Made by a program: the position numbers and the translations under genes. Positions 56,796 through 63,093 of a stretch of DNA of 64,000 bases are shown here, piece after piece. The notes beneath the pieces are model-generated. The model was not told the origin of the DNA. It did not search any database and saw only the letters and a list, made by a program, of their open reading frames with translations. The stretch comes from Streptococcus sanguinis SK355 (GTDB taxonomy: Bacteria; Bacillota; Bacilli; Lactobacillales; Streptococcaceae), in assembly GCF_000212855.1 (NCBI RefSeq), contig NZ_GL890993.1:150519-214518 (forward strand). Reading direction: 5' to 3'. Positions within the stretch are counted from its first letter, which is position 1. The number at the start of each line of letters is the position of its first letter.

Positions 56796-56803
56796 TTATT
56801 TTA
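56796..56803. repeat. Left 8-bp target site duplication TTATTTTA
   Basis: Identical to 62555-62562 at the other end of the transposon; 8 bp is the length expected for IS1595-family transposition. Confidence 0.93.
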
Positions 56804-56835
56804 GGGAACTATATACCTGTTTACACTAACCACAA
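56804..56835 (+). repeat. Left terminal inverted repeat (32 bp)
   Basis: Exact reverse complement of 62523-62554. Begins GGGAACTATATACCTG. Confidence 0.95.
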
Positions 56836-56867
56836 GGTGTAGTATTTCACAAAACATAAAAAAGACG

Positions 56868-56893
56868 ACTTCCGAATCGGAAATCGTCTTTTA
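56868..56893 (-). terminator. Passenger-operon terminator (bidirectional form)
   Basis: Stem AAGACGA / TCGTCTT with T-run on the minus strand exit (TTTTTTATG), just inside the left inverted repeat. Confidence 0.85.
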
Positions 56894-56901
56894 ATGTGAT
56901 G

Positions 56902-57459
56902 TCAATAATATTTTTTAAGTTTATCTTGATTTTCTTTGAAAAAATCTTCTAACCAATCCATGCCATAAGCATGGCTAAAACCTTCTAGGAGAACAGAGAA
57001 GTCAATACTATCAAATCCCATTTTCTTCAAACCATCAAAGGTGTTGAATGGTGAACGAAAATGCTTGTATTTGATAATCGCACCAATATCTTTCAAATCC
57101 TGCTCTCTGGTACTGACCATTTTCATCCCTAACACATATTCAATTGGAGCAACTAAAACCGTTAGATTTTCAAATGAGTACAAGGTTTCACATAAACTTA
57201 ACGGTGGCTGTGTGTTCATATTTGCCACATTATTGTTGAGCCATAGCTCTTCGTGAGTGTTAAGATTAAACTCTTGTCCGACACGAGCGATAATCTCATT
57301 GATTTTCTGGCTTTCCTCATAAAAAGCATCCACATCTTGCGTCGCACGTAAACCATGATATTCCAAGACATAGCCACCAACGCAGATAATGGTCAAAGTA
57401 AGATTTTCCTGAACCAATTCCTTATTCAAGGCTTCGAAAACAGGTTTCATTTTATCCAT
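56902..57459 (-). CDS. Passenger: DUF6036-type nucleotidyltransferase-like protein
   Basis: 185-residue protein with the nucleotidyltransferase motif ICVGGYVLEYHGLRATQDVDAF (GG ... T-x-D-x-D, about residues 26-47), as in DUF6036 and AbiEii-like proteins. It overlaps the 95-residue gene upstream by 8 bp and is the last gene of the transposase operon. Such NTases often act as toxins or partners in abortive infection systems, paired with a small regulator; whether that applies to this pair is open. Terminator follows at 56868. Confidence 0.8.
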   Translation of the reverse strand: MDKMKPVFEALNKELVQENLTLTIICVGGYVLEYHGLRATQDVDAFYEESQKINEIIARVGQEFNLNTHEELWLNNNVANMNTQPPLSLCETLYSFENLTVLVAPIEYVLGMKMVSTREQDLKDIGAIIKYKHFRSPFNTFDGLKKMGFDSIDFSVLLEGFSHAYGMDWLEDFFKENQDKLKKYY

Positions 57460-57739
57460 GTTTGTATTTCTCCATCATTTTTTGAACATTGGTTAATTTA
57501 GCTGGCTTATTTAACGAAATCACATATTCATGAGTTGGTGTGTGCTCTTGAATGGCATACTTTAAGCTAACCTTTTGAAAATCAGTTAATTCTTTGGAGA
57601 CTAGTAATTTCTCAACATCCTCATTTGTTAAATAAGAATGGTCTTCAAAAATGACTTTTCGCAAATAACGAAACCAATGACTTGCATTGAAACGTGATTG
57701 CTTGGATGCATTTATCATATAATCATACCAATCCATCAT
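57452..57739 (-). CDS. Passenger: small hypothetical protein
   Basis: 95 residues, no known motif. It starts MMDWYDYMINASKQSRFNASHWF and is helical and charged (NVQKMMEKYKHG end). It overlaps the DUF6036-like gene by 8 bp, so the two are translationally coupled and probably act together, for example as antitoxin/toxin or regulator/enzyme. There is a TAGGAGGAAG site upstream of its ATG, so expression looks real. Confidence 0.7.
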   Translation of the reverse strand: MMDWYDYMINASKQSRFNASHWFRYLRKVIFEDHSYLTNEDVEKLLVSKELTDFQKVSLKYAIQEHTPTHEYVISLNKPAKLTNVQKMMEKYKHG

Positions 57740-57786
57740 CTTCCTCCTATAAGATTTAGTTCATGTGATTGTCTATATTCAAAAGT

Positions 57787-58224
57787 CTAGCTTTTTCTCT
57801 TTCTTAACTGTTTATCTTCTTTAGGATTATAATTCAAAGCCTGTTGTAGTTTCAAATCAAAATCAGAAAGTTCTAGTTTTTCCTCCTCAAAAGGAATATC
57901 AGGCAATTCAAACTGAAACTTTTTATAAAAGAAAGTGTCGAACTCCTCTTTGTTATCTGAAATATCTACTAGAGTATCTAGTTCAGAAAGTCGATTCTGT
58001 ATGCTGATTTTTGTAATATCTCCTAGCTTTTGGTAAATCGCGTAATACGATAAATCTTGGAAAAATTTCCGATGTGATTTAACAATCGCCTGAGTATAAG
58101 GGCAATTATAATAACTGAGATATTTTTTGTAAAAATTATCAGAAAGAGAAATTTGGTAATCCACTAACTTATTGTCAATCGTTTTGGAAACTGTTCGCTC
58201 CATTTCTGCATGTAGTTTATCCAT
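57787..58224 (-). CDS. Passenger: hypothetical protein coupled to transposase
   Basis: 145 residues, charged and helical (KLHAEMERTVSKTIDNKLVDYQ; basic end LRKRKS). Its ATG overlaps the transposase stop (ATGGATAA), so it is translated with it. No recognised domain. Position suggests an accessory transposition or target-choice protein, but I have no motif evidence. Confidence 0.7.
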   Translation of the reverse strand: MDKLHAEMERTVSKTIDNKLVDYQISLSDNFYKKYLSYYNCPYTQAIVKSHRKFFQDLSYYAIYQKLGDITKISIQNRLSELDTLVDISDNKEEFDTFFYKKFQFELPDIPFEEEKLELSDFDLKLQQALNYNPKEDKQLRKRKS

Positions 58225-59131
58225 GGATTAGCTCCTTGTATTTTGTACGAACTCCTGAAGATGCTAATAGAAGATTGAAGCGGTCATTATCCGCCATACT
58301 ACGAGTATTGTAGCGGAATACAAATTCATCCACATAGTCCTGCAAATGTTTCTTAGACCATGAATGGTAAATCCCTAATACCCCTCGTTTAAGTCCTGCC
58401 CAGAAACCTTCAATCGTGTTTGTATAAATATCATCAATGACATATTCACGAGCACCATGGTTTACAAAAGCGTGGTCGTACATCTTCGCAACTTTATTAT
58501 AACCCAACCATTCATCAGTGTAAAGTTGAGCGGTATCTTTAACAAATTTAACGACTTGTTCTGTCAGAGTTTTTATACCTGTATCACTTACTTTATGAGC
58601 ATTTAATTTTCCTTCTCGTGCAACCATACCGACAACTGGAGTTTTATCTTTTAGAGAACGACCCTGTGCATTTTTGACCTTTTTAGAATTATGGCGATTC
58701 TTATTTTTACCACCAATATAGGTTTCATCTACTTCGACAGTTCCGTCCAATTCATTGTTATTTTCTGAGCCAAAGCATCTACGAATACGCTCTAACATAA
58801 ACCAAGCGGTTTTCTGAGTAACGTGAATATCTTTTGAAAGTTGAAGCGAGGAGATGCCTTTTTTATGAGAAGTCACCATCCAAATAGCAATAAACCATTT
58901 TTGAAGAGAAACCTTAGTATTATCAAACATTGTACCAGTTTTAACGCTAAAATATTTGCCAGTATTCTTGCACCTGTATTTTCCATTCTTGCACTTATAA
59001 ACCTTAGATGTTTCATCAAAAGGACTGACTACATAGCCATTCCAGCGAATTTTTTCTAAATGTTGTTCACAATGATAATCACTTGGGAAAGCATTCATCA
59101 AATCATACAATGACTTAAACTCACCTAACAT
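58217..59131 (-). CDS. IS1595 family transposase (ISXO2-like DDE)
   Basis: 304-residue transposase. N-terminal zinc ribbon (CEQHLEKIRWNG, YKCKNGKYRCKNTGKYFSV), then helix-turn-helix (ISSLQLSKDIHVTQKTAWFMLERI). DDE/DDN-type catalytic core: VEVDETYIGGKNKNRH (Asp1), AQLYTDEWLGYN (Asp2), TNTIEGFWAGLKRG (Glu). Start at ATG 59131 with AAAGGAGCAGAGAG upstream; a longer reading to 59221 is unlikely. All catalytic residues are present and there is no frameshift, so it is probably functional. Confidence 0.95.
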   Translation of the reverse strand: MLGEFKSLYDLMNAFPSDYHCEQHLEKIRWNGYVVSPFDETSKVYKCKNGKYRCKNTGKYFSVKTGTMFDNTKVSLQKWFIAIWMVTSHKKGISSLQLSKDIHVTQKTAWFMLERIRRCFGSENNNELDGTVEVDETYIGGKNKNRHNSKKVKNAQGRSLKDKTPVVGMVAREGKLNAHKVSDTGIKTLTEQVVKFVKDTAQLYTDEWLGYNKVAKMYDHAFVNHGAREYVIDDIYTNTIEGFWAGLKRGVLGIYHSWSKKHLQDYVDEFVFRYNTRSMADNDRFNLLLASSGVRTKYKELIHG

Positions 59132-59237
59132 CTCTCTGCTCCTTTTATATTCTAAAATCATTATATCATTTAAAACACAAAAGTCAATAATTAGTGTAAA
59201 ATTGGGTATAATTCTTTTCAAAACTAGTATTTTGTGA

Positions 59238-59243
59238 TATAAT
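59238..59243 (+). promoter_or_regulatory. Extended -10 promoter for the repeat ORF
   Basis: TGATATAAT (TATAAT 59238-59243), about 30 bp upstream of ATG 59273. A clear -35 is missing, typical for TGn extended -10 promoters. Confidence 0.5.
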
Positions 59244-59272
59244 AGTATTGTTGTATAAGCAAGGAGAAAAAT

Positions 59273-59371
59273 ATGACAGAAATCAAATCAAATCAAATCA
59301 AATCAAATCAAATCAAATCAAATCAAATCAAATCAAATCAAATCAAATCAAATCAAATCAAATCAAGCTGA
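59273..59371 (+). CDS. Phase-variable leader ORF with 17 ATCAA repeats (OFF state)
   Basis: ATG 59273 with AAGGAG 7 bp upstream begins MTEIKSNQ; the ATCAA tract then encodes repeating IKSNQ. With 17 units the frame hits TGA at 59369-59371. If the unit count were a multiple of three (15 or 18), translation would continue ADYVAIQSFCQ... to TAG 59475-59477, overlapping the methylase ATG at 59471. So copy number could switch translation into the nuclease-methylase start region. The peptide itself resembles nothing I know. Confidence 0.55.
   Translation: MTEIKSNQIKSNQIKSNQIKSNQIKSNQIKSS
59282..59366 (+). repeat. Pentanucleotide tandem repeat, 17 x ATCAA
   Basis: 85 bp of uninterrupted 5-bp units (phased as ATCAA) immediately after the start codon region. 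Five is not a multiple of three, so gain or loss by slipped-strand mispairing shifts frame, as in classic contingency loci. Confidence 0.97.
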
Positions 59372-59470
59372 TTATGTAGCTATTCAGTCTTTTTGTCAAC
59401 CCCTTTTTAGGACTTTTTCACTTTTTTGTGAGGAGGTCTTTTATCATATAATCTCTAAATTGGAGGTTGT

Positions 59471-61435
59471 ATGTTAGTAAGAAAAACAAACGAAAGTGAT
59501 AGCACAGGTAAATTAGTTTATCAGCTTTTTTCAGAAGCTAATTTTTCGAACAAAGACTTCTATGTAGAAAACGCTGGTGAAGCAACATGGATAGAAGCAT
59601 TAAAAGGAGCTTCTAAATCTCTAAAAGGAAAACAAGGAATTCCTGACTTCAATTTTCAATCTGGCAGATTTCACATACTTATAGAAAACAAAAAAGATTT
59701 TTCTAAATTGGAGACTTTCGACGAAAATGGTAATCTATTGATGGATGTTCATTCAATAAAAGAATATGCTGTAAATGGAGCCGTTCATTATGCAAAATGG
59801 ATTGTTGAGCATTCTTCTATTTATGATAAAATCTTTGCATTAGGAATAGTTGGTTCTCCTAGACGATATAAAATACAACCTTATTATATTGAAAATAGGG
59901 AAGATGGTCTTGTTATAAAAAGACTTAGTGATGTATTAAGTTTTGAAAATTTTAAAGAAGAGAATATTGAAGAATATTATAAAGTTTCAGTTCTTGGTGA
60001 GCTATCTCTTTATCAAGAAGAACTGAAAAATATCAATGAAATTGCATATAGTATTCACGAAGATTTGAGAAATTATGGAAATTTAGGAGCAGATAATAAA
60101 GCAACTGTAGTATCAGCTATTTTGTTAGCACTACGACATGGATTGACAGCAAATCAACTAACTGGAGGTGTTGATAGTAGTTCAGATGGTAATACTATTT
60201 TTAGAGCTATCGAAGATGAGTTGAATAATTTGTATCAAGTTAGAAGCAAAAAAATTGGTTCTCTTTTAGATACTTTTCGATTTATTACTACTGATGTGCG
60301 ATTGAATACTAAGTTAACAGAATTAGGCAATAGAACACCTTTATGGTATTTTACAGACCGTTTAAGCAATGAAGTCTATCATAGGGTAGTTGGTGGTACT
60401 CCATTTGATATATTAGGTTCATTCTATAGCGAATTTGTTAAGTATGGTGGCAATGATGGTTCGGATTTAGGTATTGTATTAACACCGTTGAATATTACTT
60501 CCCTAATGGCTGACCTAATTGAAATAAGCCCTACCGACACGGTGATTGACCCTGCTACTGGTACAGGTGCTTTTCTAATTGCTTCAATGCAAAAGATGAT
60601 TGAGCAGGTTGAAAAAGATGATGTCAATTATAAAACTAGTGAAGCTAAAAAACAAGCAATCAAAAAAATAAAGTCAGATAGGTTATATGGAATAGAGTTG
60701 AAGTCCAAACTATATGCAATATCAGCTACTAATATGATATTGCGAAATGACGGTCGTGCGCATTTAGAAGAAGGGGATATGTTTCATCTTTCTTTAGAGA
60801 ACGATGGGAATTTCGATAAACTATTGATGAATCCACCGTATAGTCAAGCCAAAACAAAAGTTACTTCTCATTTATCTGAGATGAACTTTATGATAAAGGC
60901 TTTAGGTAGATTAAAATGCGGAGGTCGAGCAGCATTTATCGTCCCCCAATCAACAATGACCAGTGGTCCAAAAGCTATAAAAGATGCTGATTATAGAGAA
61001 TTAAAACAAGAGCTGTTAGATAATAACAGAATAATTGCAGTGATTACAATGAATCCTAAGACATTTTATCCTTATGGGACAAGTCCGGTTGTTATCGTAT
61101 TGGAACATGGTGTACCACAAAAGGATAGTAGAAGCATTTTGTATGATTTTAGAGATGACGGGAATATTCTTAATCCTCATCTTGGGATGTTAGAAGATGC
61201 TACAGCAACAGAAAAGAGGAAAAGACTGCTAGATACTATTAAAGATAAGATAGATATAGATGGTGTTAACTCAATAAAAACAACTCTGACAGCAGATGAT
61301 GAATGGTTGCACAGTTATTTCTATTTTGATGATTCAATTCCAACTCCAAAGGACTTTTTATCTGCATTAAGAGACTATGCAACGTTTGAATACAGCATGA
61401 AAATTAGCGATAGAGGAGATATTTTTGATGACTGA
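59471..61435 (+). CDS. BcgI-A-like fused endonuclease and N6-adenine methylase (type IIB RM)
   Basis: 654 residues. The N-terminal PD-(D/E)xK nuclease domain reads GIPDFNF (Asp59) then FHILIENKK (Glu72-x-Lys74). The methylase domain has SAM motif DPATGTGAFL (from Asp360) and catalytic LLMNPPYS (from Asn454), typical gamma-class N6-adenine. Architecture and length match BcgI A subunits, which form a complex with a specificity subunit and cut on both sides of the target. TTGGAGG precedes ATG 59471. The stop overlaps the next gene by 8 bp. Type I HsdM would lack the nuclease domain, so BcgI-like is the better call. Confidence 0.88.
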   Translation: MLVRKTNESDSTGKLVYQLFSEANFSNKDFYVENAGEATWIEALKGASKSLKGKQGIPDFNFQSGRFHILIENKKDFSKLETFDENGNLLMDVHSIKEYAVNGAVHYAKWIVEHSSIYDKIFALGIVGSPRRYKIQPYYIENREDGLVIKRLSDVLSFENFKEENIEEYYKVSVLGELSLYQEELKNINEIAYSIHEDLRNYGNLGADNKATVVSAILLALRHGLTANQLTGGVDSSSDGNTIFRAIEDELNNLYQVRSKKIGSLLDTFRFITTDVRLNTKLTELGNRTPLWYFTDRLSNEVYHRVVGGTPFDILGSFYSEFVKYGGNDGSDLGIVLTPLNITSLMADLIEISPTDTVIDPATGTGAFLIASMQKMIEQVEKDDVNYKTSEAKKQAIKKIKSDRLYGIELKSKLYAISATNMILRNDGRAHLEEGDMFHLSLENDGNFDKLLMNPPYSQAKTKVTSHLSEMNFMIKALGRLKCGGRAAFIVPQSTMTSGPKAIKDADYRELKQELLDNNRIIAVITMNPKTFYPYGTSPVVIVLEHGVPQKDSRSILYDFRDDGNILNPHLGMLEDATATEKRKRLLDTIKDKIDIDGVNSIKTTLTADDEWLHSYFYFDDSIPTPKDFLSALRDYATFEYSMKISDRGDIFDD

Positions 61436-61892
61436 AACTTTGAAATATCTACCTTTTGAATTATCAGATACCAGATACTTTAAGTTACACTCGACAAGCT
61501 CTGGTATTGATAAAGTGAGATTAAAGATTACAAATGACCAAGAATATTTTCCATACATTACTCGGACAGATAAAAATAACGGCTGTGATATGTTTGTGGG
61601 AAAGCAGGATAAACCACTTGATAAAGGAAATTCCATTACAATTGGTTTAGATACTCAAACAGTTTTCTATCAACCTACGGATTTTTATACTGGTCAAAAT
61701 GTTCAAATATTAGAATCTAAGTTTATGACTAAAAATATCGCCCTATTTTTAATTCCACTAATAAAAAAACAACTAGTGTTACTTAACTGGGGAGGAAACG
61801 GAGCAACTTTAGGACGATTGCGTGTCAAGAAAATTGTTTTGCCAGTTGATGAAAAAATGAACCTAATTGGGAATACATGGATAGTTTTATAA
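61428..61892 (+). CDS. Specificity subunit (BcgI-B/HsdS-like), first half
   Basis: 154 residues from ATG 61428 (GAGGAG nine bases upstream). It is a target-recognition domain of HsdS/BcgI-B type: ITNDQEYFPYITRTDKNNG, QTVFYQPTDFYTGQNVQILES and GGNGATLGRLRVKKIVLPVDE at the end of the first half. It then leaves frame at the A6 run 61852-61857 and stops at 61892. One more A would give LPVDEKNEPNWEYMDSFINS, joining the second half into a ~330-residue protein like BcgI B. As written, the specificity subunit is split; a half-subunit may or may not be functional. Confidence 0.8.
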   Translation: MTETLKYLPFELSDTRYFKLHSTSSGIDKVRLKITNDQEYFPYITRTDKNNGCDMFVGKQDKPLDKGNSITIGLDTQTVFYQPTDFYTGQNVQILESKFMTKNIALFLIPLIKKQLVLLNWGGNGATLGRLRVKKIVLPVDEKMNLIGNTWIVL

Positions 61893-62425
61893 ATAGTCAA
61901 ATTAAGCCGTTAAAAGAACTAGCTAATAACTCTCTCTTGACTCCTCCGCTCATAGATTTGAATAGTGTTCCTTGGTCAGATTTTTATATATCAGATTTTT
62001 TTGAAGCTGAAAGAGGTAAATCTGGAGCAAAAGGAAAGCTCCAGAGCGGAGAAATCCCTCTTATTTCTGCCCGTAAGCAATTCAATGCTTTTGATAGTTT
62101 CGTTACAGTTGACGAAAGCAAAGTCTTCAAAGAATCAATATCAATAAACAATAACGGCGATGGTGGAGCAGGTTTAGCATTTTTTCACAACTATAAGTAC
62201 GTTGCAACTCAAGATGTGACAGCGCTAATGGAGAGGAAGTTTATGAGTAAAGAAGCTAAACTGTTTATATCTGTTTGCATAACTAAACAAGCTAACAAAT
62301 TTGGGCACGGAAACAAACTGAACTCTAAACGTCTTCTTCATCAGAAGATAATGTTACCTGTAACGATTGAAGGAGAACCTGATTTCGAATTCATGGAAAT
62401 GTATATATCATCAATAATAAGTTGA
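61858..62425 (+). pseudogene. Specificity subunit (BcgI-B/HsdS-like), second half, out of frame
   Basis: Open in the other frame from the A6 tract: NEPNWEYMDSFINSQIKPLKE, then the second recognition domain DFYISDFFEAERGKSGAKG, GEIPLISARKQFNAFDSFV and KLNSKRLLHQKIMLPV, ending at 62425. An internal ATG at 61877 exists but lacks a ribosome binding site. The C-terminal FEFMEMYISSIIS resembles the conserved helix at the end of HsdS. It is probably part of one gene with the previous entry. A terminator follows. Confidence 0.78.
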
Positions 62426-62465
62426 TAGCAATTCCGCTTTTTATAAGTTGTTTAATATCTATACC

Positions 62466-62499
62466 AAAAGCGACCTCTAATATAGAAGTCGCTTTTTTG
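62466..62499 (+). terminator. RM-operon terminator
   Basis: Stem AAGCGAC / GTCGCTT followed by TTTTTTG, about 40 bp after the specificity gene and just before the right inverted repeat. Confidence 0.88.
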
Positions 62500-62522
62500 T
62501 ATATTATCGGAAGCACTACATA

Positions 62523-62554
62523 TTGTGGTTAGTGTAAACAGGTATATAGTTCCC
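62523..62554 (-). repeat. Right terminal inverted repeat (32 bp)
   Basis: Perfect inverted copy of 56804-56835. Confidence 0.95.
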
Positions 62555-62562
62555 TTATTTTA
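62555..62562. repeat. Right 8-bp target site duplication TTATTTTA
   Basis: Matches 56796-56803 exactly. Confidence 0.93.
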
Positions 62563-62742: not shown

Positions 62743-63093
62743 ATGACAACTAAAAACTATTTACAACAATATATTTCCCAAAAAGTGAAATATTTTCGTA
62801 CAAAAAACAAAATGAGCCAGGAAGAACTTTCGGAACAGGCGGGACTTGGTCTTAAGTATATCAATCAACTAGAAAACCAAAATGTGAATCTGACCATTCA
62901 CAGTTTAGAAAAAGTGATTAATGCCTTACAGATGACCTCAGAGGAGTTTTTCAATTTTAGTAGCCTTGAATCCACCTCTGATAAGACTGAAAATCTTTCA
63001 CTAAAGAGATTTAACATGAAGATTAAACAACTTCCTGTTGATAAACGCGAAAAGATGTTAAGCATTTTCGAAAGTATCTTAGATAACCTCTGA
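62743..63093 (+). CDS. XRE family helix-turn-helix regulator
   Basis: 116-residue regulator with an N-terminal HTH_3 domain: KVKYFRTKNKMSQEELSEQAGLGLKYINQLENQ in pieces, then VNLTIHSLEKVINALQ. The C-terminal ~45 residues are charged, possibly for dimerisation. Start at ATG 62743, with no convincing ribosome binding site upstream, so a leaderless transcript is possible. It lies between the transposon and the LysR gene, on the plus strand, outside the transposon ends. Two palindromes upstream suggest autoregulation. It may control nearby island genes. Confidence 0.88.
   Translation: MTTKNYLQQYISQKVKYFRTKNKMSQEELSEQAGLGLKYINQLENQNVNLTIHSLEKVINALQMTSEEFFNFSSLESTSDKTENLSLKRFNMKIKQLPVDKREKMLSIFESILDNL

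What the first reader, a model, noticed from the sequence alone, without database searches (positions are those of the whole stretch)
56796..62562. Complete IS1595-family transposon moving a type IIB restriction-modification system
Ends, target duplication, transposase and cargo can all be read from the sequence: 32-bp perfect inverted repeats, an 8-bp TTATTTTA duplication, an intact DDE transposase, three coupled passenger genes, and a BcgI-like nuclease-methylase with specificity gene. IS1595 elements with passenger genes are known, but I know of none carrying a BcgI-like system with an attached repeat switch. Its insertion site between mleS and mleR shows recent movement. This is my leading candidate for the undescribed system.
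Basis: partly seen in the sequence, partly recalled or inferred. Interest (0 to 1): 0.93.

Follow-up and report, generated by a model that had tools for sequence, protein, structure and literature searches.

The report
Jumping restriction system with repeat switch
A transposon family found in streptococci carries interchangeable DNA-cutting defence genes, usually placed right behind a tiny repeat-filled leader gene that is predicted to act as a random on/off switch for whichever defence gene is plugged in.

Summary
In detail: a 5,751-bp element (56804-62554) with perfect 32-bp inverted repeats, 8-bp TTATTTTA duplications, an intact IS1595-family transposase, three passenger genes and a BcgI-like A subunit plus specificity gene (split here, intact in two relatives). 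Related genomes have the uninterrupted site. But this one element is not the main finding. Of 16 streptococcal elements with both ends found (window included), 14 have exact 8-bp duplications and 15 carry a restriction-modification (RM) type cargo. Elements with 98%-identical cores carry unrelated cargos; elements with 94.5%-identical cores carry the same cargo. Next to the cargo lies a short leader ORF: start codon, a 5-, 7- or 8-nt repeat, and a conserved tail. In one frame of three the tail ends within 10 nt of the cargo start (37 of 41 loci; 0 of 82 in the other frames). A stable hairpin covers the start in 9 of 13 cargo kinds. Cargos behind it include type IIB/IIG, IIG-like, EcoRI-methylase/HNH and type III systems; 41 of 284 streptococcal genomes match the tail. 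I infer a portable phase switch: repeat slippage sets the leader frame, and only an in-frame leader brings ribosomes to the cargo. Expression is untested. The window copy is out of frame.

The parts
56796..56803 (.). left target duplication TTATTTTA
56804..56835 (+). left inverted repeat, 32 bp
   Evidence: recognisable, with up to 9 changes allowed in the scan, at both ends of 16 streptococcal elements
56902..57459 (-). passenger 1: DUF6036 nucleotidyltransferase-like protein, 185 aa
   Evidence: Pfam PF19502 E=2.1e-7
57452..57739 (-). passenger 2: 95-aa protein of unknown function, conserved in the streptococcal platform
57787..58224 (-). passenger 3: 145-aa relative of the C-terminal part of P63C-domain proteins that sit beside related transposases in other phyla
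58217..59161 (-). IS1595-family DDE transposase (D140, D211, E246 of the 309-aa reading from 59146 are invariant in the five sequences aligned)
   Evidence: that these are the catalytic residues is recalled
59238..59243 (+). TATAAT, promoter-like -10 of the leader; present within 70 nt upstream of 29 of 31 leader starts
   Evidence: sequence
59273..59371 (+). leader ORF as it reads now (out of frame with its own tail)
59280..59364 (+). simple sequence repeat AAATC x17; 20 and 22 units in closely related copies elsewhere
59367..59477 (+). conserved leader tail ADYVAIQSFCQPLFRTFSLFCEEVFYHIISKLEVVC*; its stop overlaps the start of the A gene
59437..59482 (+). predicted RNA hairpin; its central 13-bp stem (59445-59457 with 59461-59473) covers the Shine-Dalgarno sequence and start codon of the A gene
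   Evidence: (z -3.13, 0 of 200 shuffles)
59471..61435 (+). cargo: BcgI-like nuclease-methylase (A), PD...ExK at residues 58-74, DPATGTG at 360, NPPY at 454
61425..61892 (+). specificity gene, first half (broken off by a frame change)
61877..62425 (+). specificity gene, second half
   Evidence: intact 332-aa relatives in L062 and L063
62523..62554 (-). right inverted repeat, 32 bp
62555..62562 (.). right target duplication TTATTTTA

Best explanation
This is an IS1595-family transposon with interchangeable restriction-modification cargo, and its repeat-containing leader ORF likely acts as a portable on/off switch for whatever cargo lies behind it. Shown: the element and its relatives, one platform with different RM cargos, repeat units of 5, 7 or 8 nt whose number differs between closely related copies, and a leader tail that ends at the cargo start in one frame only. 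Predicted by folding: a hairpin over the cargo's ribosome site and start in the window, and a stable hairpin at the start in 9 of 13 cargo representatives. Inferred: slipped-strand mispairing changes the repeat number; with the leader in frame, ribosomes translate through the hairpin and restart on the cargo; out of frame they stop 67-131 nt upstream and the cargo stays off. Because the switch lies outside the cargo gene, it would work with any cargo. Inferred: transposition and recombination near the leader spread and swap the cargo.
For: 14 of 16 elements with both ends have exact 8-bp duplications. Core 98.1% and 97.7% identical with no cargo match (L071 against L073 and L081); core 94.5% with cargo 99.9% (window against L063). 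Tail-frame stop within 10 nt of the cargo start in 37 of 41 loci with starts chosen without regard to the leader, 0 of 82 in the other two frames. 31 leaders with a readable start: 11 in frame, 20 out. Long repeats have units of 5, 7 or 8 nt; units of 4-8 nt were scanned, so 6 was allowed and not found. Window against S. sinensis: 5 mismatches and 2 gap columns in 5,668 columns outside the repeat, but 17 against 22 units. Ribosome site unpaired: median 0.17 in 34 cargo starts against 0.48 in 314 control genes, p=8e-10; 13 cargo representatives against shuffles, mean z -3.1, 9 of 13 at -2.6 or lower; window hairpin z -3.13. pN/pS of 31 tails 0.54 in the proposed frame, 0.87 and 0.96 in the others. 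Cargo identified as RM by PADLOC, Pfam, or motifs and fold.
Against: No expression, methylation or switching data. 4 of 13 cargo representatives show no hairpin beyond chance (811 aa z -0.80; 335 aa +0.57; two type III +0.23 and +1.37). In the 763-aa group the ribosome site is only partly covered (unpaired 0.32-0.53), and L192, which has the cargo of L071 behind another leader, has a weak fold (MFE -13.5, site unpaired 0.61, against -20.6 and 0.19 in L071). Related loci are not independent, so the p-values are too small; pN/pS differences are modest. 20 of 31 out of frame also fits neutral drift of a tract that does nothing. L076 and L078 lack the repeat but keep an intact cargo ORF; the L078 leader stops 30 nt before its cargo. 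One genome per species, so variation within a strain was not seen.
Confidence: 0.74

Rival explanations
1. The repeat does switch the cargo, but by transcriptional polarity: untranslated RNA behind an out-of-frame leader is terminated (Rho or hairpin) before the cargo is transcribed.
For: The out-of-frame stops leave 67-131 nt untranslated before the cargo; four cargo kinds, and L192, lack a strong hairpin at the start.
Against: The tight stop/start overlaps (37 of 41 within 10 nt) and hairpins over the start are what restart needs; polarity needs neither.
Confidence: 0.15
2. The leader and repeat are passive: a repeat-prone spacer between transposase and cargo, with the cargo expressed from its own signals.
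For: Two elements without a repeat keep intact cargo (L076, L078); many tails are nearly identical DNA, which shared descent alone could give.
Against: One-frame stop/start coincidence in 37 of 41 loci across unrelated cargos; no 6-nt unit among the long repeats although it was scanned for; lowest pN/pS in the proposed frame.
Confidence: 0.1
3. One reading: one transposon that happens to carry one BcgI-like system; the repeat is incidental.
For: All parts named are present.
Against: The same core, leader and repeat recur with other RM cargos.
Confidence: 0.03

Closest known systems
IS1595-family elements with passenger genes (MTnSag1/tISSag10 of S. agalactiae, tISCpe8 of C. perfringens); passages of PMC5704250 seen
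   Same: IS1595-type DDE transposase, passenger cargo, Gram-positive hosts including a streptococcus
   Different: tISCpe8 is a lincomycin-resistance element (title in that paper's reference list); RM cargo and a repeat leader are not mentioned in the five passages shown. The founding IS1595 paper (Siguier 2009) was seen only as a reference and not read
SSR-switched type III methylase ModS of Streptococcus suis; passages of PMC6265453 seen
   Same: Streptococcus, 5-nt repeat (GAGCA), slippage-driven on/off of an RM gene
   Different: There the repeat and a 119-bp linker form one continuous ORF with mod; here the leader is a separate ORF ending at the cargo start, and it precedes several RM types on a transposon
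Phase-variable type IIG enzyme of Campylobacter jejuni; title and abstract start seen in listings (PMC4889913)
   Same: on/off switching of a type IIG enzyme
   Different: no transposon or separate leader named in the text seen; that the repeat lies inside that gene is recalled
IS-linked movement of the PaeR7I system; title and abstract start seen (PMC3031569)
   Same: an RM system moved with help of an insertion sequence
   Different: laboratory event in E. coli from a plasmid; no constant platform with swapped cargo or switch in the text seen
BcgI-type (IIB) enzymes (the family's make-up is recalled)
   Same: A subunit with nuclease and methylase motifs, separate two-domain specificity protein
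   Different: this copy's specificity gene is split; double-sided cleavage not testable

Membership tests
IS1595-family transposon | ISXO2/IS1595 DDE transposase | tested here: met
IS1595-family transposon | transposase zinc ribbon | tested here: inconclusive
   PF12760 E=5.9e-4, 20.2 bits, under its 25.4-bit cut-off
IS1595-family transposon | inverted repeats and 8-bp target duplication | tested here: met
   (that 8 bp is the family's habit is recalled)
IS1595-family transposon | actual transposition | not testable with these tools
   different duplications around closely related copies imply it
BcgI-like type IIB RM | nuclease-methylase A subunit | tested here: met
   PADLOC 637-aa IIG model over residues 7-653; motifs
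BcgI-like type IIB RM | intact two-domain specificity subunit | tested here: not met
   split into two ORFs in the window; intact in L062 and L063
BcgI-like type IIB RM | cleavage on both sides of the site | not testable with these tools
   needs enzyme assay
SSR-driven phase-variable gene | repeat unit that shifts frame, placed in sequence that reads as an ORF | tested here: met
SSR-driven phase-variable gene | repeat number varies faster than flanks | tested here: met
   17, 20 and 22 units; 5 mismatches in 5,668 columns for the closest pair
SSR-driven phase-variable gene | reversible switching within a strain | not testable with these tools
   one genome per species held
translational coupling | leader stop at cargo start, in one frame only | tested here: met
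   37 of 41 against 0 of 82
translational coupling | downstream start hidden in a hairpin unless the leader is translated | tested here: inconclusive
   predicted fold: met in the window, z -3.13, and in 9 of 13 representatives, not in 4; its opening by ribosomes is untested
translational coupling | cargo output depends on leader frame | not testable with these tools
   needs a reporter

The most novel reading that the evidence does not exclude
A mobile, cargo-independent phase-variation cassette: streptococcal IS1595 transposons carry a plug-in switch (promoter, repeat leader, coupled stop/start, hairpin over the start) that makes any restriction-modification system placed behind it randomly switchable, and the cargo is swapped between elements at the leader, giving a travelling library of switchable defences.
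Probability: 0.68. Interest if true: 0.92.

Novelty: new variant of a known kind. Interest (0 to 1): 0.85.

Why it matters
In the phase-variable RM systems that I saw described, the repeat belongs to the RM gene itself. Here the switch would be a separate, transferable part that works on unrelated cargos, which could explain how several kinds of RM system in streptococci became switchable, and how a transposon can enter a new host with its nuclease off. Scans restricted to repeats inside methylase genes would miss these loci. It also makes a direct test possible: the same leader in front of any reporter should confer repeat-dependent switching.

Tried and rejected
Leader fused to the cargo: rejected for the loci measured; in none of the 42 loci with a cargo start does a frame of the tail run on into the cargo by more than 14 nt. 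Repeat as promoter spacer: not favoured, since a TATAAT lies upstream of the leader start in 29 of 31 and the repeat lies downstream of it. Leader in other collections: no match in viral contigs (one exact 30-nt pattern), plasmids or phages. Spread outside Streptococcus: 10 of 395 genomes drawn from the order matched, nine of them Streptococcus (own included), the tenth by a 21-nt match only. Transposase-binding site in the divergent promoter: a weak repeat-like site is among the top three in 6 of 17 elements; left open. Fold of the P63C-like passenger: pLDDT 68, not searched further. First start-codon choice favoured starts near the leader stop; repeated without that bias. Some leader starts were wrong and redone. 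The largest cargo group (763-775 aa) had no PADLOC hit to 1e-10 and no Pfam hit above its cut-off; motifs and an AlphaFold model whose best PDB matches are MmeI, an MTase and BsaXI (low TM-scores, about 0.2) place it with IIG-like enzymes.

Not followed: 8 of the 29 transposase matches (in G033, G038, G158, G159, G160, G226, G227, G228). Cargo of L194, L199, L200, L201, L202 and L207 was not classified. One of 32 distinct tails, with a stop inside, was dropped before the pN/pS count.

Full report
WHAT IS THERE. The element runs from 56804 to 62554 (5,751 bp) with perfect 32-bp inverted repeats and TTATTTTA on both sides. On the minus strand: DUF6036 protein, 95-aa protein, 145-aa protein, IS1595 transposase. 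On the plus strand: a promoter-like TATAAT, a leader start (59273), AAATC x17, a tail, a BcgI-like A subunit and a specificity gene in two overlapping ORFs. An 85-nt end query matches only the two ends of this element in the 2.37-Mb genome. The joined flanks match 27 of 284 genomes of the genus, own genome included; 14 of the 26 others align across the junction to query base 142 or beyond (72-78% identity), the other 12 match a shorter part. The alignments I printed (11 loci) show a single ATATTTTA-like copy where the window has the duplication.

THE SAME ELEMENT ELSEWHERE. Among 284 genomes of the genus, 28 hold a transposase match (E up to 1e-20) and 34 a relative of the A protein (E up to 1e-30). 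The A protein is 100% identical in two other genomes, which contig lengths identify as S. cristatus A53 and S. sinensis HKU4. Both copies lie inside the same repeats with other duplications, TTAATTTA and AAATGCAA, and have an intact 332-aa specificity gene. Window and S. sinensis copies differ by 5 mismatches and 2 gap columns in 5,668 columns outside the repeat, yet have 17 and 22 repeat units; S. cristatus has 20.

ONE PLATFORM, MANY CARGOS. I fetched 20 transposase loci (8 of the 29 matches were not fetched). With the window, 16 have both ends and 14 of these have exact 8-bp duplications. Among the 21, the three passenger families count 17, 20 and 20 ORFs; some passengers and transposases are damaged or cut. 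The cargo differs: the 654-aa A plus specificity protein (window, L062, L063), 811 aa (L064, L065), 630+367 (L068), 756 (L069, L070, L074), 775 (L071), 763-773 (L073, L076, L077, L078, L081), an EcoRI-type methylase with a GmrSD/HNH nuclease, 327+412 (L079), and 582 aa in an element cut by a contig end (L067) (one representative of each was scanned). One element, in S. anginosus (L075), has neither repeat leader nor a recognised RM gene. Core and cargo have separate histories: L071 against L073 and L081, core 98.1% and 97.7%, no cargo match; window against L063, core 94.5%, cargo 99.9%.

THE LEADER. The part next to the cargo is alike: a start codon, a repeat (AAATC, TCACAGC and others of 5, 7 or 8 nt), then a tail such as ADYVIGRVFCQPLKQAFSHFCEE. 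L076, L078 and a few others have lost the long repeat. A 70-nt tail query matches 41 of 284 genomes, more than the transposase does. I examined 47 loci (17 elements with the window, 30 further loci); 46 had a readable tail. Further cargos behind it are two kinds of type III mod-res pairs (L193; L203, with L204, L214 and L217 alike in their first residues), 688+392 aa IIG plus specificity (L221) and 335+363 aa (L208). L192 carries a 775-aa cargo 99.6% identical to that of L071 behind a tail of the kind otherwise seen with type III genes. L198, L211 and L212 have leader and cargo between repeats with the same 8-bp duplication and no transposase match, so the switch-plus-cargo unit may be moved in trans (inferred).

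FRAME TEST. With the cargo start chosen by ribosome-site strength and codon alone, the tail-frame stop lies within 10 nt of it in 37 of 41 loci (39 within 15; the misses are L077, L078, L208, L213); in the other two frames 0 of 82 stops do. Those stops fall 67 to 131 nt upstream. Of 31 leaders with a readable start, 11 are in frame with the tail and 20 are not, close to one in three. The window leader is out of frame and stops at 59371. pN/pS over 31 distinct tails is 0.54 in the proposed frame against 0.87 and 0.96.

HAIRPIN TEST. In the window a 13-bp stem, 59445-59457 with 59461-59473, covers the ribosome site and start codon of the A gene (z -3.13, 0 of 200 shuffles). Over 34 distinct cargo starts the ribosome site is unpaired at a median of 0.17 against 0.48 for 314 other genes of the same loci (p=8e-10). 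These loci are related and slightly richer in GC than the controls, so I repeated it with one representative of each of 13 cargo kinds against dinucleotide shuffles: mean z -3.1; 9 at -2.6 or lower, 4 with nothing (811 aa, 335 aa, both type III). In the 763-aa group the ribosome site is only partly covered, and L192, with the cargo of L071 behind another leader, folds weakly.

MECHANISM. Inferred: slippage in the repeat sets the leader's frame. In frame, ribosomes run through the tail, open the hairpin and restart at the cargo, whose start overlaps or abuts the leader stop. Out of frame they stop about 100 nt short, the hairpin stays shut and the cargo is off. The hairpin's 5' arm lies in the end of the tail and its 3' arm at the cargo start, so tail end and cargo seem matched in most loci, while the repeat and the first part of the tail are shared by all. 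Transcriptional polarity is the main rival.

REACH. In 11 loci of other genera a gene beside the transposase matches the profile of the window's 145-aa passenger; two of the longer ones carry a P63C domain, so the window's protein looks like a reduced relative. No leader was found in viral contigs, phages or plasmids.

WHAT IS KNOWN. In the listings of ten full-text searches (several matched more papers than were listed) and in passages of five papers I saw no description of this combination. The library lacks most subscription papers, and the 2010 survey of mobile RM forms is not held, so absence is not proven. One 2026 paper reports RM systems on mobile elements of group B Streptococcus (passages); I did not compare those elements. 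Nearest are IS1595 elements with passenger genes (passages), S. suis ModS with the repeat in the methylase ORF (passages), and IS-linked movement of an RM system (abstract start).

VERDICT. The larger finding is a family of streptococcal transposons with swappable RM cargo behind a conserved repeat leader that is predicted to be a portable phase switch. The anatomy is shown; the switching is inferred and directly testable.

Noticed in passing
L088:4365-6671(-), L076:5593-7914(+) and relatives: Common cargo of 763-775 aa with no PADLOC hit to 1e-10 and no Pfam hit above cut-off; an N-terminal D..ExK, DRCAGTG and NPPY motifs and an AlphaFold model whose best PDB matches include MmeI, BsaXI and DrdV suggest a type IIG-like family that these libraries miss; relatives are named by sources as hypothetical proteins of Haemophilus and as MHP7448_0463.
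   Followed up: partly
L198, L211, L212: Leader plus cargo between IS1595-type repeats with the duplication TAAAATAT and no transposase match: a non-autonomous form.
   Followed up: partly
L201, L202: The heptamer repeat begins directly at the inner edge of an inverted-repeat-like sequence, with no separate leader start found.
   Followed up: no
L075:2521-5592 of the reversed locus (S. anginosus J4206): 3.07-kb element with the core genes but no repeat leader; its cargo begins with a 120-aa ORF of unknown function.
   Followed up: no
window 61425-62425: Specificity gene split into two overlapping ORFs by a frame change; intact in two closely related copies elsewhere.
   Followed up: yes
window 59191-59214: A stretch 75% complementary to the left transposon end lies in the divergent promoter region; a similar site is among the top three internal matches in 6 of 17 elements, perhaps a transposase operator.
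   Followed up: partly
L027:4071-4160: (CAGAG)x18 tract downstream of a distant A-protein relative (30% identity); no element end was found in that 4.9-kb locus.
   Followed up: no
window 62743-63093: Small HTH (Cro/C1-type) gene between the right end of the element and the LysR-type regulator.
   Followed up: no
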